Source of the DNA: Salipiger sp. H15
Lineage (GTDB): Bacteria > Pseudomonadota > Alphaproteobacteria > Rhodobacterales > Rhodobacteraceae
DNA: 64,000 nucleotides
Reading direction: 5' to 3'
Assembly: GCF_040409955.1 (NCBI RefSeq)
Contig: NZ_CP123384.1
Coordinates: forward strand, 2,799,501-2,863,500
Part shown: in pieces, positions 23,480 to 34,552 of the stretch
Numbering within the stretch: the first letter of the stretch is position 1
How the letters are laid out: each line of letters opens with the position of its first letter
Position numbers and translations under genes: made by a program
Notes under the pieces: generated by a model
What the model was told of the DNA's origin: nothing
What the model saw: the letters and a program-made list of their open reading frames with translations, nothing else
The model's database searches: none

Positions 23480-23710
23480 TCAGGCAGCGGTTTCAGTGGG
23501 TGGGATGAAGTCAGTGGGCTCAAGTTCGACCCCTTTCTTCCTGGCCAGCGCCACGAGTCTCGGCACGTGCCGATAAGGAATGAGTCCGTTGGTACCGCCC
23601 TTCGAGCGAGGTGCTTGCCACATCGAGACGCGTGTTCGGTGGATGCCAATCGCCTCGGCTACTGCGGTCGGGCCACCGAGGGCGGCGATTATTCGGCTTG
23701 CGGGTTCCAT
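23480..23710 (-). CDS. Cro-like repressor, YdaS-type HTH
   Basis: The 76-residue protein reads ASRIIAALGGPTAVAEAIGIHRTRVSMWQ, an HTH with the YdaS/Cro family turn, followed by GLIPYRHVPRLVALARKKGVEL. It is divergent from the S24 repressor gene, with 62 bases between, as cro is to cI. There is no ribosome binding site. A promoter TTGCGA-17-TACGTT places the transcript start on the A of the ATG, so the mRNA is probably leaderless. It would repress the same operators as the CI-like protein and drive lytic growth. Good confidence in the regulatory role. Confidence 0.85.
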   Translation of the reverse strand: MEPASRIIAALGGPTAVAEAIGIHRTRVSMWQAPRSKGGTNGLIPYRHVPRLVALARKKGVELEPTDFIPPTETAA

Positions 23711-23716
23711 GTCGCA

Positions 23717-23745
23717 AACGTAGCGTTTTTAGCTACACCTCGCAA
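23717..23745 (-). promoter_or_regulatory. Leftward early promoter (PR-like) for cro
   Basis: On the minus strand the -35 element is TTGCGA (23740-23745) and the -10 element is TACGTT (23717-23722), with a 17-bp spacer. Operator copy 1 fills most of the spacer, so a bound repressor would block the polymerase. Seven bases past the -10 lies the first base of the cro ATG. The same architecture recurs at 29214-29242. Confidence 0.7.
23719..23737. promoter_or_regulatory. Operator copy 1, CGTAGCGTTTTTAGCTACA
   Basis: A 19-bp near-palindrome with arms GTAGC and GCTAC, in the spacer of the cro promoter. It matches three other sites in the window (23753, 29189, 29222), all 19 bp long and with the consensus TGTAGCKnnnnnMGYTACA. 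Centre-to-centre distance to copy 2 is 34 bp. Confidence 0.8.
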
Positions 23746-23752
23746 CATGCTT

Positions 23753-23771
23753 TGTAGCGAATTTCGTTACA
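23753..23771. promoter_or_regulatory. Operator copy 2, TGTAGCGAATTTCGTTACA
   Basis: A 19-bp near-palindrome that ends one base before the start codon of the repressor gene. Occupancy would affect repressor transcription itself, as in autoregulation of cI. The match to the other three copies is close (TGTARCG arms). Confidence 0.8.
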
Positions 23772-23772
23772 G

Positions 23773-24459
23773 ATGAGCGCTGCGCGCACCGATAAACTGC
23801 GCTGGAACATGCTTTCGCGAACACCCATATCAACGCCACTTCACGCGTGGCTCAACAAAGCTCTGGAATTCTCAGGGCTTAGCCAAACTGCGCTCGCAGA
23901 AAAACTCGACGCGGTGGTCCCCAAGAAAGTTGATCGATCGACCATCAACAAGATGGTCCTCGGGAAGCGCGCAATTTCGGCCGAGGAGCTCCTCCGCATT
24001 TCGGAGATTACGGGCTTTGCGGTGCCCGGCGAAACGCCCATGACACCGACCATTGCCATCGCAGGAAGGGTTGGTGCTGGCGCTCAGGTACCAGTTTTCG
24101 ATGCCTACTCGAAAGGTGCTGGACCCCAAGTGGAATGCCCGCCGGGCCTATCGCCACATGGAGTGGTCGCAGTTGAGGTCGAAGGTGACAGCATGGAGCC
24201 CGTGTATAGCGCCGGGGATCTTTTGTTCTACACTCGCGAGGCGCACGATGGCGTACCAGCCCAAGTGATCGGCCACAGATGCGTGGTGGAAGACGAAAAT
24301 GGTATGGGCTGGGTCAAACAAGTGAAGCCAGGAGACGAGCCAGGTCTGTTTCACTTGATCTCATTGAACCCTGGCGCCAACACAATGTGGAACAAGCGCT
24401 TGAAATGGGCCGCGCGCGTTCGTCTTCACTGGCCGGCGGAGCTTGCCAGAAGGGTCTAA
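23773..24459 (+). CDS. CI-type repressor, LexA-like S24 autoprotease
   Basis: The 228-residue protein has an N-terminal HTH (AWLNKALEFSGLSQTALAEKLDAV... INKMVLGKRAISAEELLRI, about 25-80) and a C-terminal S24 peptidase domain. The cleavage site is Ala97-Gly98 in IAIAGRVGAG. The nucleophile is Ser140 in EGDSMEP, and the partner Lys is in WVKQVKPG, so RecA-stimulated self-cleavage and induction by DNA damage are expected. No ribosome binding site precedes ATG 23773, so the maintenance transcript may be leaderless, as in lambda. An internal ATG ahead of SRTPIS is an alternative start. It keeps the prophage silent through the four operators. Confidence 0.92.
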   Translation: MSAARTDKLRWNMLSRTPISTPLHAWLNKALEFSGLSQTALAEKLDAVVPKKVDRSTINKMVLGKRAISAEELLRISEITGFAVPGETPMTPTIAIAGRVGAGAQVPVFDAYSKGAGPQVECPPGLSPHGVVAVEVEGDSMEPVYSAGDLLFYTREAHDGVPAQVIGHRCVVEDENGMGWVKQVKPGDEPGLFHLISLNPGANTMWNKRLKWAARVRLHWPAELARRV

Positions 24460-24792
24460 CGATTGGCTTAGGGAGCGCTCTTCACAGCGAGGTTCGGCCT
24501 TCCACGCGGACGCGACATCGGCCTTAAGTTGCCGTTCAGGCTCTGTGAAGCAGATGACCGAAGGCAGCCCAAAGTTGCCGGTCGTGTCAGACGCGGAATG
24601 CGCCTAGTGACAGCCCAAATCTGCCGTCCATAATGGGCGCGGAGGAGTTCCACTACAAATTCAATGTCGGCGCTTGCTCGAGGAAGCCCGTATAGCTCGT
24701 CGGAGCGCATGCATGCCACAGTCAGAGTCCTGGAGCCGTCGCCAGCTTTGTGCCACCTTTCGGAAGGCACCGGTACTGCTTAGTGTTGGTAT
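24460..24792. repeat. Non-coding stretch with three degenerate CCnAAnTTGCCG units
   Basis: No gene is seen in the 333 bases between the repressor and the HNH gene. Three related units occur: CCTTAAGTTGCCGTTC (from 24522), CCCAAAGTTGCCGGTC (from 24568) and CCCAAATCTGCCGTCC (from 24613), spaced about 45 bp. Such units look like decayed intergenic repeats of the host family rather than phage sequence. A promoter for the HNH gene would be expected here but none with good -35 and -10 is evident. Confidence 0.4.
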
Positions 24793-25878
24793 ATGGAACT
24801 CATCATTTCTGACGATCATGGCCTTGGCTTGGATGCAACTGTGGAAGTTGAGCCGGGCATCATCATACTCCACAGTCGAGGGGGAGCAATTGGCTCTTCC
24901 AATGCGAGAAATCGTGATTACAGTGTCGGCCTACGCCTCATCCTCAAGCGCATTCTTACGAGTCACATCCAAATAGTCGGTGCGTGGGTAGATAGCAGTC
25001 GCGTCCAGATATTGCCTCTCACCGAGCGAGCGATATTGCATCCCAGTGATCTTCCAGAAAACCCTGATAACCTCTTCACACTTGTGAGTCGGCGCATGCA
25101 GGCTGTGGGCCGCTCGCCTCACACCGGTCGACGATACGGAAATTCCAACCGACGCATCAAGATATCGGTCGAGGTCCAGTCAATAGCCGAAATCGTTAAG
25201 GTAATCGGAGCGATAGAGAAGACCGATACCTTTAAGATGACGACACGACTTCCCACGGAACAGCTCAGAAAAATTACGCCTGAGCACATCTGGCAAGCCA
25301 TTACGGAGACGGAAGAGTTCGACCCGAGTGGCGTATTCGGACCGTCCACCGATTATGATCTACTTTCTGAAACGGGAAGTCGTTTGCCGCCTAAGGCAGT
25401 TTTCGGCCGCGCAGCCAGCTTGGCTCTCGGAATTTCGGTTGGACCTCAACAATTTTCGGCTGGGAAAGGAACGCCTTGTTTCAAAATTCTGGAAGAAGCC
25501 GGCTATCGTATCGTTAGAAAAAGTGATCCAGTAGTTCTGACCGAGCTTCTCTCTGAAGAAGACAGAGTATGGGCGGAGGGAAAACCTCGTCTCGTCAGTC
25601 ATCTGCGGCGCGAACGAGGGCACGGCTTGGCAAAGGCAAAGAAGGCAGAGTTCCTGCGCCTGCATGGCCGCCTATTCTGTGAGAAATGCGAAATGGACCC
25701 TATTGAGGTCTTCGGGAGCGAAGACGGGGAAGCATGTATTGAAGTCCATCACCATTCGACAGCCGTATCCGAAATGAGGGACGGGCACAAAACGCGACTC
25801 GAAGATCTGCAATGCTTGTGTGCAAACTGTCATCGATACATCCACAGAGTGATGAAAAAAAATGGCCTTAGCGAATGA
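24793..25878 (+). CDS. HNH endonuclease with ScoMcrA-like head domain
   Basis: The 361-residue protein has three parts. Residues 1-125 are of unknown type, with beta strands and one basic stretch GRRYGNSNRRIKIS. Residues about 160-232 (EHIWQAITETEEF... RLPPKAVFGRAASLALG... GPQQFSAGKGTPCFKILEEAGY) match the head domain found at the N-terminus of ScoMcrA-like modified-DNA restriction enzymes. The C-terminal 291-355 is an HNH nuclease: CEKC (296-299), the HHH run (319-321), Asn345 and the CLCANCH run (341-347) complete a zinc-ribbon betabeta-alpha-Me fold. It is low-GC, follows the repressor in the same direction, and lies inside the immunity region where lambda has rexA and rexB. A role in restricting incoming phage DNA is a reasonable inference. 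Confidence 0.75.
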   Translation: MELIISDDHGLGLDATVEVEPGIIILHSRGGAIGSSNARNRDYSVGLRLILKRILTSHIQIVGAWVDSSRVQILPLTERAILHPSDLPENPDNLFTLVSRRMQAVGRSPHTGRRYGNSNRRIKISVEVQSIAEIVKVIGAIEKTDTFKMTTRLPTEQLRKITPEHIWQAITETEEFDPSGVFGPSTDYDLLSETGSRLPPKAVFGRAASLALGISVGPQQFSAGKGTPCFKILEEAGYRIVRKSDPVVLTELLSEEDRVWAEGKPRLVSHLRRERGHGLAKAKKAEFLRLHGRLFCEKCEMDPIEVFGSEDGEACIEVHHHSTAVSEMRDGHKTRLEDLQCLCANCHRYIHRVMKKNGLSE

Positions 25879-26465
25879 TGGCCTGGGAAGAGAAATAAGA
25901 GCAAGAAACTGTCTCGTTTTTTATCTACCGCGTCGCCAGAGCATGTCTGCAGTATATTGGCTGGTGACGCGGCAGCTGTCTGAATTCTGATTAGCAAGGG
26001 ATTGGCGGTACGGTTCGACTGCCGAACTATGAAATGCCCGAGCTTAGCTAGGCCTTGGCGCGGATGGATAAGAAGTGAACATTCGCCGGGGGAAGTGTTG
26101 CACTATACCAGCAAATTATGCTGCTTCCGCATCTCTAATGGCTCAAGTCCGAAGGTAGCTAAAGCGGCCTGTCGCAACTGAGGCGCCGATCGGCTCGAAC
26201 GCCGGAATGAGGACTCTTGCTGCGGGTTCGTAAATATTCCCGTCTCAAGGCGTAGTCGGACTGTCGGGTAGGCATACGGAGTCGGTGCCAGAAGAAGCAA
26301 CGCGCAGGGTGGAAGAGTAAGAATTCGCCACTCTATTGGATGACAGCCTAACCAGCAAACGCCAGAAGGTCGCGCTCGCGATAGTAATGCGCAAGTAGAC
26401 CAACTGGAAGACGCCGTGATCGCGGGCACCCGAATCTACGATCCATCGTGGGTAAATCGTATCGA
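25879..26465. other. Low-GC non-coding stretch
   Basis: About 590 bases between the HNH gene and the convergent 500-residue gene. Frames exist on both strands but none has a binding site or recognisable protein pattern. It may hold remnants of a decayed gene. Composition matches the two flanking cargo genes. Confidence 0.4.
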
Positions 26466-26498
26466 CTGTCGGGGCCGGAATGCATCCGGCCCCGACAG
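26466..26498. terminator. Strong hairpin terminator between convergent cargo genes
   Basis: A perfect 13-bp stem (arms CTGTCGGGGCCGG and CCGGCCCCGACAG) with a seven-base loop. It starts nine bases past the stop of the minus-strand gene. On the plus side it is followed by CCCGTTTTCT, a short T-run. It can serve both directions. Confidence 0.8.
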
Positions 26499-26506
26499 CC
26501 CGTTTT

Positions 26507-28009
26507 CTACAGATCGAGCGCAACCCCGAAGGTCGCGTTTCCGGTGGCGGGATCGGATTGCCCTACCATGCCCGGCAGAAGGTCGGCCACATCCGCCAAC
26601 AAACCCAGTTCTGCAATCGGAATCCGTGTCGTCTTGACTACTTGGCGCGACAGGATCGGCAGTAGCTTTTTAACCACTTGTTCGAGAATCCAGCCGGCGA
26701 CCGAAGAAATCGGCCATGGCAGGCTGTTGGTGAAATGGAAGTCGTGGGCCTTTGCGTGCTCCACGCGTGAAACGAAGACAATGTCTCTGCGGCGATGGTC
26801 GTAAGATATCGAGAATTTCACATCCAGATGCACACGCCCGTCGAACTGTACGCCGATCGCCTCGTGCCATATGCTGCCAATCTTGATCCCGGCCCCGGCC
26901 TGACCAGCGGCAAAGACACCGGTGGTCAGCCGGAAGACGATGGGCCACGGCTTCACCAGATTAAGGTCTAGTTGCCCATCCAGCGCGGCGGTCAGTGAAT
27001 AATGGGTGAAGAATGGCCCATTGCGACTGCGGTCATTGGTATTGACGGCAGGCTTCAAGACTCCATCAAAATTAGCCCTCAACAGGTTTACGGGAGTGAA
27101 CAAGAAAACGTGGCCCACATTGCTCGGTTCCTCGTTGGGCAGGGGGACCGGCCATTGGTAATCAGGATGGCCTTCGGAGATTTGCCCGGACACGTTCAGA
27201 GCTTCGGGCAAGGCTTCAAGAGCTTCGACGTTGCTTGCCGACAGGGGTTCGACGACGGCGCCGTCGAATGTAGTCCACGTCTGCACGGCACCGCTAAAGG
27301 CGGGCTTGTGGGACGGGCAATTACCGAAATTCAACGATGTCGTGGCCGTGAACATCAGAAGATTGTCTTTTGCCGCAAAACGCGAATCATTGCCGAAGGT
27401 GATGCCGACGAACATTTCAAGGAAATCCGGGAACTCGAGAGCTTCGACGACCGAACGGGCCATCGCCGGTGCGGCATTGAGAATGGCCGCACGCACCAAC
27501 AGCTTCAGATCATCCCAATCGGCGTCTGAAAATTCGTAAGGATTAGATTCCAACTGAGTTTTGAGTGCATCGTCAGTTTCCCAAAGATGCTCGACGCGAT
27601 CGGTGGCATGGGTTTCGCTTTGCGGCGTGATCACGATCCGACGGTCGAGGAATCCGAACAGTCCGATAACTTCGGAATAGTTCAGGCGGACCTTGGCGAC
27701 GGCTTTGGCGTCGACCTTCAGTGTAAATGAGATGAACAGATTTCCAAGCGTCAGACCGGGCCGGTCCGCGCCCTGCGGTTCCTGGATATCGATAAAGGCT
27801 AGCGTGATCGCGCTCATATCGACTTCAGCATCGAATGTGACGCGGTATTTCGACTTAAACAACTCGCTGGACGGCATGTCCTGGACAGCGCTGCTGGATT
27901 GAGAGATCTGGCGCAGCAGAACGCGCCGAATGACGTCTATTGAAATACCGATCCCGGCGTTATCTTTGCAGAACGGTTCGAGGTTTGCGTGGGCGTCTTT
28001 AGGATGCAT
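26507..28009 (-). CDS. Unknown 500-residue protein, immunity-region cargo
   Basis: A long, well-formed gene with ribosome binding site AAGGAG eight bases from ATG 28009 and a terminator right after its stop. I do not recognise the family. No signal peptide or membrane helix is present. Alternating beta-strand segments dominate (KYRVTFDAEVDMSAITLAFIDI, LTLGNLFISFTLKVDAKAVAKVRLNYSEV, VHLDVKFSISYDH), with a more helical region at about 165-200. The C-terminal part has SLPWPISSVAGWILEQVVKKLLPILSRQ, an amphipathic helix. It looks like a lipid- or ligand-binding scaffold rather than an enzyme. The lower GC and place between OL and OR mark it as accessory cargo. Toxin-antitoxin, exclusion or lysogenic conversion are all open. 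Confidence 0.6.
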   Translation of the reverse strand: MHPKDAHANLEPFCKDNAGIGISIDVIRRVLLRQISQSSSAVQDMPSSELFKSKYRVTFDAEVDMSAITLAFIDIQEPQGADRPGLTLGNLFISFTLKVDAKAVAKVRLNYSEVIGLFGFLDRRIVITPQSETHATDRVEHLWETDDALKTQLESNPYEFSDADWDDLKLLVRAAILNAAPAMARSVVEALEFPDFLEMFVGITFGNDSRFAAKDNLLMFTATTSLNFGNCPSHKPAFSGAVQTWTTFDGAVVEPLSASNVEALEALPEALNVSGQISEGHPDYQWPVPLPNEEPSNVGHVFLFTPVNLLRANFDGVLKPAVNTNDRSRNGPFFTHYSLTAALDGQLDLNLVKPWPIVFRLTTGVFAAGQAGAGIKIGSIWHEAIGVQFDGRVHLDVKFSISYDHRRRDIVFVSRVEHAKAHDFHFTNSLPWPISSVAGWILEQVVKKLLPILSRQVVKTTRIPIAELGLLADVADLLPGMVGQSDPATGNATFGVALDL

Positions 28010-28044
28010 GCATCAAACTCCTTAAAAGAAACAGGCCGACATAC

Positions 28045-28270
28045 TTAAAACGGCGTATGGCCCGAAATTAGCTTTGCTTGCATTTGCCCGTTGAACAAGT
28101 TTTTTCCGCTTCCAGGGCTGTCTACGGTCACCCAGACGGCTGCGGCCGGCCGGATGAAACTGCGAAGTGGCCTCCTCGTGGCGTTGCGGCGTCTTTTCAC
28201 AGCGCGGTGGTGGTGGATTTCAATGCCAGTGAATAGATTTCTGATCGGAGTAGCCGATATTCTCTTACTG
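28045..28270 (-). pseudogene. Truncated ORF cut by the IS element
   Basis: On the minus strand the frame ending at 28045 reads RPAAAVWVTVDSPGSGKNLF then NGQMQAKLISGHTPF, which looks like a genuine C-terminus. Going upstream it runs without stop into the left end of the IS at 28271. The gene that the IS interrupted was therefore probably in the same operon as the 500-residue gene, 35 bases ahead of it. Its 5' part is not present in the window on the other side of the IS in recognisable form. Function unknown. Confidence 0.45.
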
Positions 28271-28280
28271 GGCTCAGGAC

Positions 28281-29038
28281 TCATAGCCAGAAGGTCACAG
28301 TAGCGGCGAGAGCGACGGCTGACAGGAAGATCTTCGGGCATCGGTCATAGCGAGTGGCAACGCGGCGCCAGTCCTTGAGCCTGCCGAACATGATCTCGAT
28401 CCGGTTTCGGCGTTTGTAGCGGCGCTTGTCATACTTCACCGTCGCCTTGCGCTGTTTCCGTCCGGAGATGCAGGCGCGTATCCGTTTGTCTTTCAAAGCT
28501 TCCCGAAACCAGTCGGCGTCGTAGCCGCGATCCCCGAGCAGCCAGTCGACATCCGGCAGACTGTCGCGAAGCGCCCGCGCGCCGACGTAGTCGCTCACCT
28601 GGCCTGCTGTGACGAACAGGTTGAGGGGACGCCCTTGGCTGTCGCAAATGGCAGGCAGTTTCGCGTTCATGCCGCCCTTGGTCCGTCCGATCAGGCGGCC
28701 AGGCCCCCCTTTTTGGCGGCCGAACTGGACGCCGTTCGGTGAGCCTTCAGGTAGGTTGCGTCAATCATCACGGTCTTTTTCTCGCCGTGCCCGGCAGCCA
28801 GTCCCGCCATCATCCTCGCGAAGATGCCCTTGTCGCTCCAACGCTTCCAGCGGTTGTAGAGCGCCTTGTGGTGGCCGTATTCCCTTGGCGCGTATCTCCA
28901 GCGCAACCCATTGCGATTGATCAAGATAATCCCGCTGAGAACGCGCCGATCATCAACGCGAGGTTTGCCGTGGGACTTCGGGAAGTAGGGCTCCAGACGC
29001 GTCATCTGCGCATCGCTCAGCCAGAAGAGATCAGACAT
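28281..29038 (-). CDS. IS5-family transposase, two frames joined by -1 shift
   Basis: Frame A (29038 to 28691) gives 115 residues with MSDLFWLSDAQMTRLEPYFP, the typical IS427 start, and the first catalytic Asp in MIDATYLKAHR. Frame B (stop at 28281) provides the second Asp in LLGDRGYDADWF and the Glu in RRNRIEIMFGRLKDW. All three DDE residues are intact. The frames are joined in -1 phase at a run of A5G6: the codons AAG GGG GGC give the slippery heptamer GGGGGGC at 28703-28709, after which the sequence reads GRLIGRTKGGMNAKLP, matching the family. The element therefore looks capable of movement. Confidence 0.88.
28703..28709 (-). promoter_or_regulatory. -1 slippery heptamer GGGGGGC in the transposase
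   Basis: Frame A reads AAG GGG GGC CTG; a one-base slip back at this X XXY YYZ heptamer brings ribosomes into frame B, 17 bases before the frame A stop. Programmed -1 shifting at A/G runs is the usual expression mode of two-frame IS427 transposases. Confidence 0.65.
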
Positions 29039-29188
29039 ATCACCGCTCTGTTCTCGCGCGGTGCATCATGCCCCCCGGCACAATCAATGGGTCTTGAGCC
29101 TAGTCCCTCATTCTTAGTTCAGCCGAAGTGGTCCGCACCCCGCTGCCCGCAAGCCGAAAACCTCGTATTAACAGAGATTTACGCAATT

Positions 29189-29207
29189 TGTAGCTAAATA
29201 AGTTACA
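29189..29207. promoter_or_regulatory. Operator copy 3, TGTAGCTAAATAAGTTACA
   Basis: A 19-bp near-palindrome of the same family as the two sites next to the repressor gene. It lies just upstream of the -35 element of the rightward promoter, with a centre-to-centre distance of 33 bp to copy 4. Confidence 0.8.
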
Positions 29208-29213
29208 CGGTGG

Positions 29214-29242
29214 TTGCTTTGTGTAGCGTTTTTCGCTACATT
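29214..29242 (+). promoter_or_regulatory. Rightward early promoter (PL-like)
   Basis: The -35 is TTGCTT (29214-29219) and the -10 is TACATT (29237-29242) with a 17-bp spacer. Operator copy 4 occupies the spacer, exactly as copy 1 does in the cro promoter. It would drive the operon from 29303 to the integrase. The predicted transcript starts near 29249. Confidence 0.75.
29222..29240. promoter_or_regulatory. Operator copy 4, TGTAGCGTTTTTCGCTACA
   Basis: The best palindrome of the four: perfect seven-base arms TGTAGCG and CGCTACA around five T. It is probably the strongest site for the CI-like repressor. Confidence 0.85.
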
Positions 29243-29302: not shown

Positions 29303-29647
29303 GTGCCAGCTCGCACACCTGACCGCGCGCATAATAGATTTGCCCTGCATCTCACTAACCCCGGCCTTGCAGTCGATTTCCCAGATATCTGCCAGGAATC
29401 TTGGCTCGATGCCAAAGAGGCCCAAGGTAAGCCAATCATCAGTGAGCGCCTCGCACGGCTCGAGGCGATGACCTCGCACTATCCGGCCCCACCGGTGGTG
29501 GCCGATCGCGAGGATGATCTCGCTGCCGTGCTCGAGCGGGCCCGCCCCGCCATCACCGCCGCATGCGAGCGGGTGAAGGGCGAGCGGGCCGCCAGGCGCG
29601 CTCGCCTCATCCAGCGGCTGCTCGGCCAGCCCGAAGGCGCGGCCTAA
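29303..29647 (+). CDS. First early protein of the integrase-side operon, unknown
   Basis: The 114-residue protein uses a GTG start at 29303 with AGGGAG upstream. It is soluble and basic at the C-terminus (KGERAARRARLIQRLLGQ), with a central helical region EDDLAAVLERARPAITAACERV. It is the first gene behind the PL-like promoter, where lambda has N; no antitermination motif such as an Arg-rich N-terminus is visible. Family not recognised. Confidence 0.55.
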   Translation: MPARTPDRAHNRFALHLTNPGLAVDFPDICQESWLDAKEAQGKPIISERLARLEAMTSHYPAPPVVADREDDLAAVLERARPAITAACERVKGERAARRARLIQRLLGQPEGAA

Positions 29648-29921
29648 CCCATCCCCGTCGGTCCCATGCCCGGCGCCATCCAGCCACGGGCGCTGCCAGC
29701 CGTCCGGCGCGAAGAGACGACGACCAAGAAGAAGCCACCACTCACGCGGTCGCCGGACTCTCTACAGGCCCGCGCCCGCTGGATGCCGCCCAACATGGAA
29801 CCGATCACACCGAATGCCGGGCATGAGGCCCGCATCCCCTCGCCGCGCCCAACCATGGAATCTGCGTATGCCCCGCGAATGAACGCGGCGAGGGGGCCAG
29901 TTTCTTCAACGAGGACCGAGC
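29648..29921. other. Leader region with long inverted repeat before the GapR-type gene
   Basis: No gene is supported here. A perfect 12-bp inverted repeat, CCCCTCGCCGCG at 29836-29847 and CGCGGCGAGGGG at 29884-29895, has a 36-base loop and ends 26 bases before the next start codon. It could be a transcription terminator subject to antitermination, or an RNA structure controlling the downstream genes. The transcript start is at least 600 bases upstream. Confidence 0.5.
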
Positions 29922-30281
29922 ATGTTGATGCCTCACGAGAACGACTTTCAGCCCGACGACGTCGGCGCCGACATGGCCCGATCAGCGTCGAAGAAGCACA
30001 CCCCGATGAAGGAAACCGCCGAGGACATCGAGGTGAAGAACGACGCGTATGGCGTCGCCGCGGGCGAACTGAAGCAGTTCATCGAGCGCTTCGAGCGCCT
30101 CGACCTCGAGAAGAAGGAGATCGCCGACCAGCAGAAGGCGGTGATGGCCGAGGCCAAGGGCCGAGGCTACAACACCAAAGTCCTGCGCAAGGTCATCGCC
30201 CTACGCAAGCGCGACAAGGCCGACATCGCCGAGGAAGAGGCGGTGCTCGCGATGTACAAAGCCGCGCTGGGGATGGATTGA
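29922..30281 (+). CDS. GapR-family DNA-binding protein (DUF2312)
   Basis: The 119-residue protein matches GapR/DUF2312 from about residue 48 on: ELKQFIERFERLDLEKKEIA, then the conserved helix DQQKAVMAEAKGRGYNTKVL and KVIALRKRDKADIAEEEAVL. GapR is an alphaproteobacterial nucleoid protein that encircles overtwisted DNA ahead of replication and transcription forks. The first 45 residues are an acidic, phage-specific extension. It has GAGG before the ATG and overlaps the next gene as TGATG. A phage copy may aid replication or alter host DNA topology; chromosomal copies are essential in the group. Confidence 0.85.
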   Translation: MLMPHENDFQPDDVGADMARSASKKHTPMKETAEDIEVKNDAYGVAAGELKQFIERFERLDLEKKEIADQQKAVMAEAKGRGYNTKVLRKVIALRKRDKADIAEEEAVLAMYKAALGMD

Positions 30282-30526
30282 TGCAGGACGTCCTTTCAGC
30301 ACCTATCGCGCCGCCGCCATCCATGGGCGAGCACGCTCATCGCAAGTCGGCCGACCTGCCCCCGCTCAAACCCCAAAGCACCGTGCGCCGCGAGCCGCTG
30401 CTGCCCGAGGGATGGTGGGTCGGCGTCCTGGTCTTCGCGATCATCGTCATCGGCGGCGTCTCCCTGCTCAGCTTTGTCCTTTCACTGCTCGCATCGGCGA
30501 TCCGCTCCTTTTCGGAGGTCTACTGA
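30281..30526 (+). CDS. Single-pass membrane protein, early phage gene
   Basis: The 81-residue product starts at ATG 30281, sharing a base with the upstream stop, and its own stop overlaps the methyltransferase start in the same way. The first 45 residues are polar and Pro-rich; a hydrophobic helix WWVGVLVFAIIVIGGVSLLS spans about 46-70. There is no signal cleavage site. The N-terminus would be cytoplasmic if the positive-inside rule is followed (RREPLLPEG before the helix). Function unknown; the position next to defence-related genes makes exclusion or anti-defence possible. Confidence 0.6.
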   Translation: MQDVLSAPIAPPPSMGEHAHRKSADLPPLKPQSTVRREPLLPEGWWVGVLVFAIIVIGGVSLLSFVLSLLASAIRSFSEVY

Positions 30527-32634
30527 TGCGCGACACCTTCGACTTCCCCGAGCTGCCCGACCGCGCCCTCAACGGCCTGCCGCTGATCGTCGACAGCTTC
30601 GCCGGCGGCGGCGGGGCGAGCACCGGCATCGAGCAGGCGCTCGGCCGCGGGCCCGACATCGCGATCAACCACAACCCGGCGGCGCTGGCGCTGCACGCAG
30701 CGAACCACCCCGAGACGCTGCACCTCTCCGAGAACGTCTATCGCGTCGATCCGCTCGACCATCTCGCGGGCAAGCACATCGGCCTCATGTGGTTCAGCCC
30801 GGACTGCAAGCACTTCAGCAAGGCCAAGGGCGGCAAGCCTGTGGCGCGCAACATCCGCGATCTCGCGTGGATCATCCCCGGCTGGATCGAGCGCATCCAG
30901 AAGAGCGGCGGGCGCGTCGACGTCGTGCTGATGGAGAACGTCGAGGAGTTCGCCGGCTGGGGCCCGCTGATCGAGACCGAGCGCGGCCTGATGCCCTGCC
31001 CCGACCGCAAGGGCGAGACCTTCGCCACCTGGTGCAAGGCTATCCGCAAGCTCGGCGGCAAGATCGAGCGCCGCGAGCTGCGCGCCTGCGACTACGGCGC
31101 GCCGACCATCCGCAAGCGGCTCTTCGTCGCCATCCGCTTCGACGGCCAGCGGATCGTCTGGCCCGCGCCCACGCATAGCGCGCCGGATTCCCCCGAGGTG
31201 AAGGCGGGCAAGCTGCTGCCGTGGCGCACAGCGGCGGAATGCATCGACTGGTCGCTGCCTTGTCCGTCGATCTTCGACAGCAAGGCCGAAGTCATGGAAA
31301 AGCACGGGCTGCGCGCCGTGCGCCCGCTGGCCGACAACACGCTCGCCCGTGTCGCCAAGGGGCTGCGCCGCTACGTGCTGGACGCCGGGCACCCCTACCT
31401 CGTGAGCATCGCCCACGGCGACAGCGGCGGCCGCCGGGAATACCCGCTCACCGAGCCGCATGGCGTCGTGACCGCAGGAGGCATCTCGCACGCGGTGGTC
31501 GCGCCCACGCTAATGCGGCAGTTCAAGTGCTCGAGCGCCGCCGACATCGACATGCCTTCGCCCACCATCACCGCCGGCGGCGGCGGGAAGACCGCGCTCA
31601 TCGCTCCGTCGATCGCGAAGTTCATGACCGGCGCCACTGGCAGCGACATCGCCGCCCCGCTCCCCACGGTCACCGCCAACAGCTACCTCAAGCGCCCCGG
31701 CGGCGCGGCACCGCTCGGCATCCTCGCGCCGCTGCTGGCCAGCCTGAAGGGCACCACGCGCCGTATGGACCCCGTGGCGCAGCCTCACCCCACCGTCTGC
31801 GCCGAAGGCAACCACGGCGCCGTCGTTGCGCCGGTGCTGACCTACGCGCAGCAGGGCGGCCGCTGCCGGTCGATCGAGGATCCGCACCACACCATCTGCG
31901 CGAGCAAGAAAGACCAGAACAGCATGATCGCCGCGACCATGGTGCATGTCGGGAACGGCGAGCGGAAAGGCCAGGCGCCCCGCGCGCTCGACATCACCGC
32001 GCCGCTCAACACCGTCGTGGCGGGCGGCGTGAAGCAGTACCCGGTCGCGGCCTTCCTCGCCCAGCAGAACAAGGACGGGCGCGGCGTTCACCCGGGCCGC
32101 CCCGCTGGTGAGCCGATCTCGACCGTCACCAGCTCGGGCAGCCACCAGACGCCGGTCGCCGCATGGCTTGCGAAATACTACGGCACCGGCGATGGCGCGC
32201 CCGCCACCGAACCGATGCACACGATCACCACCAAGGATCGGATCGTGCCGATGCAAGCCGCGCTCGCGGCCCCACCCTTCGACGATAGCCACGCGCCACG
32301 CGCCCGCCAGGTGGCGGAGTTGCTGCGCGAGCACGGCCTCTGGGATGACCGCGAGTTCGTCACCGTCGAGATCGGCGGTACGTCCTTCGTCATCGTCGAT
32401 GTCGGCATGCGGATGCTCACCCCGCGCGAACTCTTCAACGCGCAGGGCTTCCCGTCCGACTACGTGATCGAGGGTGTCTGGCACGAGCGCGGCGGCGAGT
32501 GGGACTTCGAGGCCTTCCCGAAGGACGTGCAGGTGTCCTGCGTCGGGAACAGCGTCTGCCCGCCGTTGGCCGAGGCGCTGGTGCGGTCGAACTGCGCGCA
32601 CCTGGTGACCGCGATGAAGGAGCAAGCCGCATGA
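30526..32634 (+). CDS. C5-cytosine DNA methyltransferase with repeat-rich recognition domain
   Basis: The 702-residue enzyme starts at ATG 30526 (TGATG overlap). Motif I is DSFAGGGGASTG (about 23-34) for S-adenosylmethionine binding. Motif IV is SPDCKHFS with catalytic Cys94, a PDC variant of the usual PCQ. Motif VI is ENV at 137-139, motif VIII is YGAPTIRKRLF, and motif X is CVGNSVCPPLAEAL near 672. Between VIII and X lie about 300 residues with eight copies of an (E/A/D)P-x-x-T-(I/V)-x-(A/S) unit, near 310, 344, 378, 419, 452, 492, 529 and 562. Usual enzymes have one or two. It probably protects phage DNA against host restriction. No matching endonuclease is adjacent. Confidence 0.88.
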   Translation: MRDTFDFPELPDRALNGLPLIVDSFAGGGGASTGIEQALGRGPDIAINHNPAALALHAANHPETLHLSENVYRVDPLDHLAGKHIGLMWFSPDCKHFSKAKGGKPVARNIRDLAWIIPGWIERIQKSGGRVDVVLMENVEEFAGWGPLIETERGLMPCPDRKGETFATWCKAIRKLGGKIERRELRACDYGAPTIRKRLFVAIRFDGQRIVWPAPTHSAPDSPEVKAGKLLPWRTAAECIDWSLPCPSIFDSKAEVMEKHGLRAVRPLADNTLARVAKGLRRYVLDAGHPYLVSIAHGDSGGRREYPLTEPHGVVTAGGISHAVVAPTLMRQFKCSSAADIDMPSPTITAGGGGKTALIAPSIAKFMTGATGSDIAAPLPTVTANSYLKRPGGAAPLGILAPLLASLKGTTRRMDPVAQPHPTVCAEGNHGAVVAPVLTYAQQGGRCRSIEDPHHTICASKKDQNSMIAATMVHVGNGERKGQAPRALDITAPLNTVVAGGVKQYPVAAFLAQQNKDGRGVHPGRPAGEPISTVTSSGSHQTPVAAWLAKYYGTGDGAPATEPMHTITTKDRIVPMQAALAAPPFDDSHAPRARQVAELLREHGLWDDREFVTVEIGGTSFVIVDVGMRMLTPRELFNAQGFPSDYVIEGVWHERGGEWDFEAFPKDVQVSCVGNSVCPPLAEALVRSNCAHLVTAMKEQAA

Positions 32635-32957
32635 GTGAGTTCGCCACACCAAATGCCCCGGAAAGGGACGAGGCCCTCACCGAGGCAGATGCTAATCAAG
32701 AAATAAAGCTTGAAATACCTACACTCCCAAGGACCCAGTCAAATGGACCGGCGAATTCCATGGAGCACTCGGACCAACGCGTCCACTCACAGACAGCACC
32801 CATGCTGTCGGCCAAAACCGAGTCTGTCGATACTAAGGGATTAGCCCATGCGGGTAGGCCTCTATCCTTTTGGGTAGGTCGGGACCCTATAGCAGCAGCC
32901 GAGATCGAGCGGCTGGGGGCGGCAGTTCGACGGGAGGCAACATGTTCGGAGGCATAG
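32631..32957 (+). CDS. Small hydrophilic protein of unknown function
   Basis: The 108-residue frame starts at ATG 32631 (ATGA overlap with the methyltransferase) behind AAGGAG. It is hydrophilic, with no motif beyond short EADANQEIKLEIP. The composition is less GC-rich than neighbouring genes, and codon use is looser in the middle. The good start signal supports a real gene but the sequence looks little constrained. Its end overlaps the next gene by 16 bases. Confidence 0.45.
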   Translation: MSEFATPNAPERDEALTEADANQEIKLEIPTLPRTQSNGPANSMEHSDQRVHSQTAPMLSAKTESVDTKGLAHAGRPLSFWVGRDPIAAAEIERLGAAVRREATCSEA

Positions 32958-33118
32958 AGATCATCGCCGTAGAGCCGGGCACCGAGATCGAGCACGAGGG
33001 CGAGAAGCTCACCGTGACCGAGACCAGTGCCGTGCATCTCGGGAACCGCATGTACATGACCGAGAAGCAGGTGGCGGCGCTCAAGGCCCACCCCTCGGTG
33101 AAGACGGAGGCACCATGA
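32942..33118 (+). CDS. Small phage protein, 58 residues
   Basis: The frame starts at ATG 32942 behind GGGAGGCA and ends by ATGA overlap with the excisionase-like gene. The sequence opens with a beta-rich IEIIAVEPGTEIEHEGEKLTV and then AVHLGNRMYMTEKQVAALKAH, a small domain with a strand pair and a C-terminal helix. No family is known to me. Its tight coupling to xis and int suggests a recombination or control accessory. Confidence 0.6.
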   Translation: MFGGIEIIAVEPGTEIEHEGEKLTVTETSAVHLGNRMYMTEKQVAALKAHPSVKTEAP

Positions 33119-33321
33119 CTCACAGCCAGCCCCTCGCCGTCCGCGAGTCCCGCGCCGCCCAGCTGCTCGACATGCCACCGGCCTGCTTCCGCGCTCTCGT
33201 CGCCCAAGGCGCGCTCCCGCCGCCGGTGATGATCGGCGACCAGAAGCGGTGGAGCGTGGCGCAGATCGAGGCCATCCTGTCCGGCAAGAACGCCATCCCG
33301 AAAGAGGACTTTGAACTTTGA
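33115..33321 (+). CDS. Excisionase-like HTH protein
   Basis: The 68-residue protein is a MerR/AlpA-type winged helix: VRESRAAQLLDMPPACFRALVAQGALPPPV, then IGDQKRWSVAQIEAILSG. The pattern of HTH followed by RWxVxxIEAxL is that of phage excisionases and AlpA-like regulators. It overlaps the preceding gene as ATGA and the integrase start by four bases. It likely binds att arm sites and directs excision. Confidence 0.8.
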   Translation: MTHSQPLAVRESRAAQLLDMPPACFRALVAQGALPPPVMIGDQKRWSVAQIEAILSGKNAIPKEDFEL

Positions 33322-34355
33322 AGCCCCCGAAGCCCCGCATCCAGCGCAAAGGACTCATATGGCGCTGGGAGCGCGGAGCGTGGCAACCCTACCATCGGTC
33401 GTACTGGACCGAAGACGGCAAGCCGCGCCAGAAGGAAGTCTTCCTCGCGTGGGGCGGTGACGAGGTGGAGCTCGACCGGATGTACTGGCTCGCGCGGAGC
33501 GGCAAGCACGCGACGCAGGTACGGCCAGCAACGCACACCTGGCGCGAGTGCATCGTCGAATGGCGGTCTGACCTGACCATCCAGGGCGAGCTCGCCCCGA
33601 GCACCAAGAAGAGCTACCGCCGGGCGATGGACACCATCCTCGAGAAGAACGGCGGCAAGGATATGCGCGACCTCACGCGCAAGCAGATGCGCGCCGCTCT
33701 GAGCAACCTTGCCGCCACCCCGCGGAAGGCCAGCCGCTACGCGCAAACCATTTCCATCCTCTGGAACTACGCCGCGAAGGAACTGGACTGGCCGCTCGGG
33801 CCCAACCCGGCCTCAGGGCTCGCGAAGTACAAGCCCGCGCGCGAGTATGAGCCGTGGCCAGACTGGATGATCGCCAAGCTCAATACGGCCCCCGAGCGCG
33901 TGCAGATCGCCGCCGAGCTTATCCGGGGCACCGGCCAGCGCCCGAGCGCGGCCATCACCATGCGGCGGGACCAGTTCGCCGGGGAATGGATGACCGTGGT
34001 CGACGAGAAGAGCGACGAGATGTTCCCGGTCTACTGCCCAGACCGGCTGCGCGTCTTCGTCGACGGCCTGCCGAAGCGCGGGGCCCACATGCTGGCGAAG
34101 AACCTGACCGAGCCCGTGGGCTATTCATCGATCGAGCACGCGTTCCGCACTTGGCGCAAAGACCTCGGGGAGCGCGCAAAGCCGTTCACGCTGCATGGGC
34201 TGCGGAAGCTTGCGATCGTCGAGTTGGCCGAGGCCGGCGCGTCTGACGCCGAAATCCAAGCCGTCACCGGGCAGAGCGCGCAGATGGTGGCGTTCTACCG
34301 GAAGAAGGCGAACCGCAAGGCGCTTTCGAAGGCGGCGCAGAAGCGGCGCGAGTGA
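33318..34355 (+). CDS. int: Tyrosine-type phage integrase
   Basis: The 345-residue recombinase uses a TTG start at 33318 that overlaps the excisionase stop. The N-terminal arm- and core-binding domain (HTWRECIVEWRSDL... STKKSYRRAMDTIL) is followed by the catalytic domain with Arg208 (GTGQRPS), His293 and Arg296 (TLHGLRKL) and the nucleophile Tyr327 (VAFYRKK). The fourth active-site His is replaced (VTGQSAQM). It sits about 110 bases from the tRNA-Leu gene, pointing at its 3' end, so it surely mediates integration there. Confidence 0.92.
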   Translation: MKPPKPRIQRKGLIWRWERGAWQPYHRSYWTEDGKPRQKEVFLAWGGDEVELDRMYWLARSGKHATQVRPATHTWRECIVEWRSDLTIQGELAPSTKKSYRRAMDTILEKNGGKDMRDLTRKQMRAALSNLAATPRKASRYAQTISILWNYAAKELDWPLGPNPASGLAKYKPAREYEPWPDWMIAKLNTAPERVQIAAELIRGTGQRPSAAITMRRDQFAGEWMTVVDEKSDEMFPVYCPDRLRVFVDGLPKRGAHMLAKNLTEPVGYSSIEHAFRTWRKDLGERAKPFTLHGLRKLAIVELAEAGASDAEIQAVTGQSAQMVAFYRKKANRKALSKAAQKRRE

Positions 34356-34449: not shown

Positions 34450-34468
34450 AAGCTGAATGATTTCAGCT
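34450..34468. terminator. Hairpin abutting the tRNA 3' end
   Basis: Arms AAGCTGAA and TTCAGCTT around TGAT (the last arm base is shared with the encoded CCA end). On the tRNA strand it follows the gene immediately and could be its terminator, although no T-run follows. It could equally be an integrase core or arm site, since it lies in the attachment region between int and the tRNA. Confidence 0.45.
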
Positions 34469-34552
34469 TGGTACCCAAGGCCGGACTCGAACCGGCACGC
34501 CTTGCGGCGGGGGATTTTGAATCCCCTGCGTCTACCATTCCGCCACTTGGGC
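34469..34552 (-). tRNA. tRNA-Leu(CAA), prophage attachment site
   Basis: On the minus strand the 84-base gene begins GCCCAAGTGG and ends with an encoded CCA. The anticodon stem GGGGA/TCCCC encloses TTCAAAA, giving anticodon CAA. The variable arm, CGCCGCAAGGCGTG, is of the long class expected for leucine, and the T arm reads CCGGTTCGAGTCCGG. The acceptor stem pairs GCCCAAG with CTTGGGT, with a G-U at the first pair. Its 3' end faces the integrase, the classical attB for this recombinase type. A second copy of the 3' end (attL) is not in the window. Confidence 0.95.

What the first reader, a model, noticed from the sequence alone, without database searches (positions are those of the whole stretch)
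23717..29242. OR/OL-type operator system: four 19-bp palindromes in two promoter-embedded pairs
Sites at 23719, 23753, 29189 and 29222 are all 19 bp, fit TGTAGCKnnnnnMGYTACA, and are paired at 34 and 33 bp. In each pair one copy fills the 17-bp spacer of a promoter (TTGCGA/TACGTT for cro, TTGCTT/TACATT for the integrase-side operon). This reproduces the lambda immunity logic, with a new operator sequence, and defines what lies between as the immunity region.
Basis: partly seen in the sequence, partly recalled or inferred. Interest (0 to 1): 0.75.

Follow-up and report, generated by a model that had tools for sequence, protein, structure and literature searches.

The report
Lambda-type phage switch with new operators
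A dormant virus in a marine bacterium carries four copies of a short mirror-image DNA word at its two main on-switches, and related viruses keep the same layout while changing the word together with the part of the protein that most likely reads it.

Summary
Four 19-bp palindromes lie at 23719, 23753, 29189 and 29222, paired at 34 and 33 bp; eight strand-matches with at most one mismatch compare with 0.06 expected, and the host genome list shows no other such pair. They sit in a prophage of about 44.6 kb between 35-bp repeats at tRNA-Leu.

Relatives support the lambda-like reading. Seven of seven distinct loci with this repressor head (window included) keep an OR pair and an OL pair, one site of each filling a TTG-17-TAC promoter. 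Of 54 distinct viral loci found by Cro alone, 46 have the palindrome just upstream of cro, against 0 and 2 of 54 in two control stretches; OL-like pairs occur in 22 of 54, against 0 of 54 on the opposite side. The palindrome goes with the CI DNA-binding domain (43 of 46 against 1 of 8). Repressors sharing the S24 half but not that domain show other words in a like layout. Phage phiLM21, whose operators were reported unknown, carries this word.

A new immunity specificity of a known kind. Protein binding was not tested.

The parts
23719..23737 (.). operator OR-A, in the spacer of the cro promoter
   Evidence: kept in 8 of 8 OR regions
23753..23771 (.). operator OR-B, ending 1 bp before the cI ATG
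   Evidence: GTTACA half kept in 8 of 8 OR regions
29189..29207 (.). operator OL-A, upstream of the OL promoter
   Evidence: pair kept in 7 of 7 OL regions
29222..29240 (.). operator OL-B, in the spacer of the OL promoter
23717..23745 (-). cro (PR-like) promoter TTGCGA-17-TACGTT
   Evidence: TTG-17-TAC frame in 8 of 8 OR regions
29214..29242 (+). OL (PL-like) promoter TTGCTT-17-TACATT
   Evidence: TTG-17-TAC frame in 7 of 7 OL regions
23773..24459 (+). cI-like repressor, HTH_3 + Peptidase_S24, 228 aa (start at codon 1 or 13 uncertain)
   Evidence: PF00717 3.9e-8, PF01381 5e-7
23480..23710 (-). cro-like gene, 76 aa
   Evidence: weak P22_Cro and YdaS matches below cut-off; phrog_8008 DNA binding protein 7.3e-7; 53% identical to the annotated Cro-like protein of phiLM21
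24793..25878 (+). cargo between cI and OL: HNH protein, type IV restriction-like
   Evidence: phrog_3106 3.7e-6; PADLOC mREase_IV 2.2e-7; no Pfam match
26507..28009 (-). cargo between cI and OL: 500-aa protein of unknown family
   Evidence: no match in Pfam, PHROGs or PADLOC
28281..29038 (-). IS5-like transposase in two frames, beside OL
   Evidence: phrog_4716 6.8e-36 and phrog_33747 1.7e-11, transposase; 'IS5-like' is recalled
29303..34355 (+). operon facing away from OL: 114-aa gene, GapR-like, methyltransferase, excisionase-like, integrase
34468..34502 (.). att repeat, 35 bp, in the 3' part of tRNA-Leu

Best explanation
The four palindromes are the operators of a lambda-type lysis/lysogeny switch. 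The S24 repressor CI and the divergent Cro bind the word TGTAGCG-n5-CGCTACA and its variants (inferred). CI on OR-A and OL-B sits between the -35 and -10 hexamers of the two early promoters and shuts off cro and the integrase-side operon (inferred). OR-B overlaps the start of cI and would serve autoregulation and Cro's shut-off of cI, while CI on OR-A could stimulate the poor cI promoter (inferred). The 33-34 bp spacing suits side-by-side dimers, about one helical turn wider than the 23-24 bp recalled for lambda (inferred). Self-cleavage of CI through its S24 domain would induce the phage (inferred from the domain). Shown here: the sites, their pairing, the promoter nesting, their conservation in relatives, and their association with the CI DNA-binding domain and Cro.
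For: Exact sites and spacing; own-genome list with no other pair; 7 of 7 distinct loci with this CI N-terminal domain have both pairs, all above every shuffle; TTG-17-TAC frame in 8 of 8 OR and 7 of 7 OL regions; 46 of 54 loci found by Cro alone have the word upstream of cro, controls 0 and 2 of 54; OL-like pairs in 22 of 54 on the cI side, 0 of 54 on the cro side, and TTG 7-9 bp from the promoter site in 44 of 46 and 19 of 22; word goes with the CI N-terminal domain, 43 of 46 against 1 of 8 (Fisher p 5e-6); other words with other N-terminal domains.
Against: No binding data. OR has two sites, not three. 8 of 54 Cro-bearing loci lack the word, and 32 of 54 showed no OL-like pair under the criteria used (some contigs are short). 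In the four-site scan 14 of 50 loci did not beat all 25 shuffles. The S24 half is also somewhat more alike within operator groups than in label shuffles (0.79 against 0.73, 0 of 2000 reach it), so relatedness is not fully separated. Cro falls below the Pfam cut-offs. No clear cI promoter was identified.
Confidence: 0.88

Rival explanations
1. The sites are chiefly Cro's operators, and CI acts elsewhere or through other contacts.
For: Cro was the search key, and 46 of 54 such loci have the word.
Against: Among Cro-bearing loci the word goes with the CI N-terminal domain (43 of 46 against 1 of 8); loci with a related Cro but another CI domain show a different outer word.
Confidence: 0.06
2. The sites belong to another regulator, for example a toxin-antitoxin autorepressor or a host factor.
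For: L135 has two TGTAGCG-n5-CGCTACA palindromes 33 bp apart beside what looks like a HigBA pair (name recalled).
Against: Fixed position in the cro and OL promoters of many prophages and absence of such pairs elsewhere in the own-genome list.
Confidence: 0.05
3. Chance palindromes.
For: At 3 mismatches the pattern is near expectation (18 against 10.8).
Confidence: 0.01

Closest known systems
Phage lambda immunity region and heteroimmune coliphages such as 434
   Same: Divergent cI and cro, operators at OR and at a second early promoter beyond cI, operators inside promoters; heteroimmune relatives keep the circuit and change operator specificity (lambda/434 statement seen as a passage of PMC6550527; the rest recalled)
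   Different: Two OR sites, a new word, spacing about 10 bp wider than recalled for lambda, an alphaproteobacterial host, no antitermination gene looked for
Rhizobium phage 16-3
   Same: Two OL and two OR operators (oL1, oL2, oR1, oR2, named in a passage of PMC12429752); alphaproteobacterial
   Different: Operator sequences not compared here; that passage says they are absent from phiLM21-like prophages
N15, phiKO2 and PY54 immB
   Same: N15 has three operators between cB and cro and two OL, the layout of several relatives here; PY54 cI and cro mRNAs are leaderless (passages of PMC4488713), as positions suggest here
   Different: Enterobacterial linear plasmid prophages; other words
Sinorhizobium phage phiLM21
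   Same: Cro-like protein 53% identical, related CI N-terminal domain (L182), same word at cro and as an OL pair 35 bp apart
   Different: Different repressor C-terminal half; two weaker extra OR sites

Membership tests
lambda-type immunity region | Divergent repressor and cro genes with the operators between them | tested here: met
lambda-type immunity region | Repressor with HTH and S24 (LexA-like) domain | tested here: met
   PF01381 and PF00717 above cut-off; GDSM serine and VK lysine invariant in 7 of 7 (catalytic role recalled)
lambda-type immunity region | Second set of the same operators at an early promoter on the far side of cI | tested here: met
   7 of 7
lambda-type immunity region | Three operators at OR | tested here: not met
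   two sites in group A; three in several other groups
lambda-type immunity region | Heteroimmune relatives with swapped CI head, Cro and operators | tested here: met
lambda-type immunity region | CI and Cro bind the operators, cooperatively, with OR-OL looping | not testable with these tools
   needs footprints and reporters
lambda-type immunity region | N-like antiterminator downstream of OL | not tested
   the 114-aa gene at 29303 has no Pfam or PHROGs match
P22_Cro / YdaS protein family | Score above Pfam's curated cut-off | tested here: not met
   21.2 of 30.2 and 20.6 of 30 bits; weak matches (E up to 0.01) in 30 and 36 of 50 relatives

The most novel reading that the evidence does not exclude
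An undescribed family of alphaproteobacterial prophages shares one S24 repressor half and one OR/OL layout but has about ten exchangeable specificity cassettes (CI DNA-binding domain, Cro, operators). The TGTAGCG cassette occurs in both Rhodobacterales and Rhizobiales prophages with unrelated repressor C-terminal halves and is the unknown operator set of phiLM21. The stretch between cI and OL is a hotspot for variable, partly defence-like cargo, in the place where lambda carries rexAB (recalled).
Probability: 0.6. Interest if true: 0.55.

Novelty: new member of a known kind. Interest (0 to 1): 0.42.

Why it matters
It gives testable operator sequences for many marine and soil prophages whose immunity is uncharacterised, including phiLM21, for which a 2025 paper found neither lambda nor 16-3 operators and left the question open (PMC12429752, passages seen). 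Natural pairs with a nearly identical S24 half but a different reading head and operator word (L053 and L061: 96% and 12% identity) are a ready series for studying how repressor-operator specificity changes.

Tried and rejected
A first de novo palindrome scan was swamped by GC-rich chance palindromes; asking for a pair at OR and a pair downstream of cI was better. In one search, 36 of 50 loci beat all 25 shuffles and 14 did not; 53 further loci were dropped as duplicates or too short. I did not check every one of the 36 for a sensible motif (L036, L040, L063, L086 and L098 were not looked at further). I assigned the operator groups by reading the words; L011, L014, L025 and L026 rest on OR alone, L074 only, and L088 did not beat all shuffles. 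L082 (broken cI) was left out of the comparison, L027 out. In one search, 63 loci gave 54 tested (8 duplicates, 1 too short). Of the 46 positive loci L203 and L207 just pass the threshold but read as the TTGCGAT type. The column counts use 44 of the 46 sites (L190 and L207 left out, their nearest site not being in the promoter position). The ORF picker took wrong frames for some cro genes (L080, L049, L052, L054); L080 was set right by coordinates. L024 and L086 have one or two near-matches and were not pursued. A Cro search of 385 genomes of the class found matches in 18; I did not scan those loci for operators. Solved structures: none matched CI by sequence; the Cro profile's only cro match was P22 Cro at E 0.074, ranked below two SH3 chains. 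I found no earlier description of this operator in paper searches (listings) nor in the passages seen of PMC12429752, PMC5537653, PMC6536676 and PMC13345283; the library lacks most subscription journals.

Full report
Observation. Within one mismatch the window holds exactly the four palindromes reported, at the stated coordinates and spacings; only 23719 departs from the consensus, by its first base. In the own genome (6.1 Mb, 7 contigs) the slightly relaxed pattern TGTARCKNNNNNMGYTACA gives 43 places with at most 2 mismatches and 7 with at most 1, four of them these sites; read from that list, no other two lie 28-38 bp apart.

Setting. The window holds most of a prophage. A 35-bp exact repeat of the 3' part of tRNA-Leu lies at 34468-34502 and 10.1 kb left of the window, which makes the element about 44.6 kb. 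Portal and terminase genes lie at 13.8-18.3 kb. cI (23773-24459) has HTH_3 and Peptidase_S24 domains; cro (23480-23710) is divergent. The OL promoter faces an operon with a GapR-like gene, a methyltransferase, an excisionase-like gene and an integrase. Between cI and OL are an HNH gene, a 500-aa gene and a transposase in two frames.

Promoters. One site of each pair fills the 17-bp spacer of TTGCGA/TACGTT (cro) and TTGCTT/TACATT (OL), and the operator's terminal TAC is the start of the -10 hexamer. The TTG-17-TAC frame is kept in 8 of 8 OR regions and 7 of 7 OL regions listed, window included. The cro ATG begins 7 bases after the -10 and the cI ATG 2 bases after the last base of OR-B, so both mRNAs may be leaderless (inference); PY54 is a precedent (PMC4488713, passages seen). 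A second Met at codon 13 of cI is also invariant in 7 of 7, so the cI start is not certain.

Close relatives. Seven distinct loci with this CI N-terminal domain (window, L032, L033, L034, L035, L079, L080; hosts named are Salipiger marinus, Salipiger abyssi, Alloyangia mangrovi and an unnamed Rhodobacteraceae bacterium) all have the OR pair at 34 bp and an OL pair at 33-34 bp, each scoring above every shuffle. OR-B keeps the GTTACA half in 8 of 8 regions, the eighth being L082 with a broken cI; a lasting difference between sites is what one expects if they are read with different strength (inference). The gap from cI to OL runs from 1.1 to 6.6 kb and holds different genes.

Out-of-sample test. 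A profile of eight Cro proteins found 63 viral contigs, of which 54 were distinct and long enough. 46 of 54 have at least 11 of 14 arm bases of the word within 200 bp upstream of cro, against 0 and 2 of 54 in two stretches downstream (Fisher p 2e-19 for 46 against 2). Five of the 54 (L146, L147, L148, L152, L182) correspond to profile members; without them it is 41 of 49. The nearest site starts 26-31 bp before cro in 40 of 46, and TTG stands 7, 8 or 9 bp before the site in 17, 23 and 4 of 46. OL-like pairs 28-38 bp apart occur on the cI side in 22 of 54 and on the cro side in 0 of 54; TTG stands 7-9 bp from the promoter site in 19 of 22. In the listing 15 of the 22 OL spacings are 34 bp.

Who reads the word. 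43 of the 46 loci with the word and 1 of the 8 without it have a divergent gene matching the group-A CI N-terminal profile; only 23 of 54 match the S24 half (Fisher p 5e-6). The word therefore goes with the CI DNA-binding domain plus Cro rather than with the S24 half. Several loci with a related Cro but another CI head show TTGCGAT-n-ATCGCAA repeats at the same place (read by eye). Relatedness among the loci was not corrected for.

Heteroimmune series. Repressors with the same S24 half but other N-terminal domains have other words in a like layout: TTCACAT-n-ATGTGAA (OR 34, OL 35), GGGGTAT-nn-ATACCCC, TGGGTAA-nn-TTACCCA, TGTAGGA-n4-TCCTACA, GGGGTAA-n-TTACCCC and more; several have three OR sites 23-24 and 34-36 bp apart, the middle one often weak, with an OL pair mostly 27-31 bp apart. 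Grouped by word, 40 repressors are 0.78 identical in the N-terminal half against 0.24 in 2000 label shuffles; for the S24 half it is 0.79 against 0.73, a small difference that no shuffle reached either. L053 and L061 are 96% identical in the S24 half and 12% in the N-terminal half. The host itself carries a second prophage of the family with the word GCGGTAA-nn-TTACCGC, so the two would be heteroimmune (inference), although that cI looks frameshifted.

Known phages. phiLM21 carries TGTAGCGGTAATCGCTACG and TGTAGCGATAAAAGCTACG 35 bp apart on the far side of its repressor, upstream of a leftward run of genes that includes ERF and exonuclease, and TGGTGCGATAATCGCTACA at cro, with two weaker OR sites. 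PMC12429752 (passages seen) says operators identical to those of lambda or 16-3 are absent from phiLM21-like prophages and leaves theirs open. Paracoccus phage Pyei1 shows ATGGGGGAACTCCCCCAT upstream of its S24 repressor, resembling group H here.

Verdict. A lambda-type switch with a new operator word: same principle as lambda, 434, 16-3 and N15, with two OR sites and wider pairs. Binding, cooperativity, looping, autoregulation and leaderless starts are inferred.

Noticed in passing
L139 (own genome C2:862000-880000): A second prophage of the same family in the same host, with operators GCGGTAA-nn-TTACCGC at L139:9780, 9803, 11569 and 11599; its cI reads in two overlapping frames, so it looks frameshifted.
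   Followed up: partly
window 24460-29188; L106, L045, L033, L050, L034: The stretch between cI and OL holds different cargo in different relatives, some of it defence-like: 4 of 10 such proteins scanned match PADLOC at E up to 0.01 (window HNH as mREase_IV, L033 PDC-M24B, L106 DarT, L045 REase_MTase_IIG); Pfam adds RhuM, HSDR_N, HNH_2 and ADP-ribosylglycohydrolase.
   Followed up: partly
L049:8683-10095, L052:8557-9892, L062:8647-10042: Two-gene pairs of about 282-306 aa and 160-164 aa between cI and OL, the smaller looking membrane-bound by eye; position and sizes recall lambda rexAB (recalled), but no Pfam match above cut-off.
   Followed up: partly
L135:828-879: Two TGTAGCG-n5-CGCTACA palindromes 33 bp apart beside genes that look like a HigBA toxin-antitoxin pair (name recalled, no family search), apparently unrelated to the phage switch.
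   Followed up: no
L144 (Paracoccus phage Pben1), L203, L204, L206, L207: Related Cro but another CI head; the OR repeats read TTGCGAT-n-ATCGCAA or TGGTGCGATAATCGCATCA, sharing an inner GCGAT-n-ATCGC core.
   Followed up: partly
window 30412-32634: A 740-aa DNA methyltransferase-like gene (phrog_116) in the OL operon; relatives of 52-86% identity lie in several other loci, among them L079.
   Followed up: no
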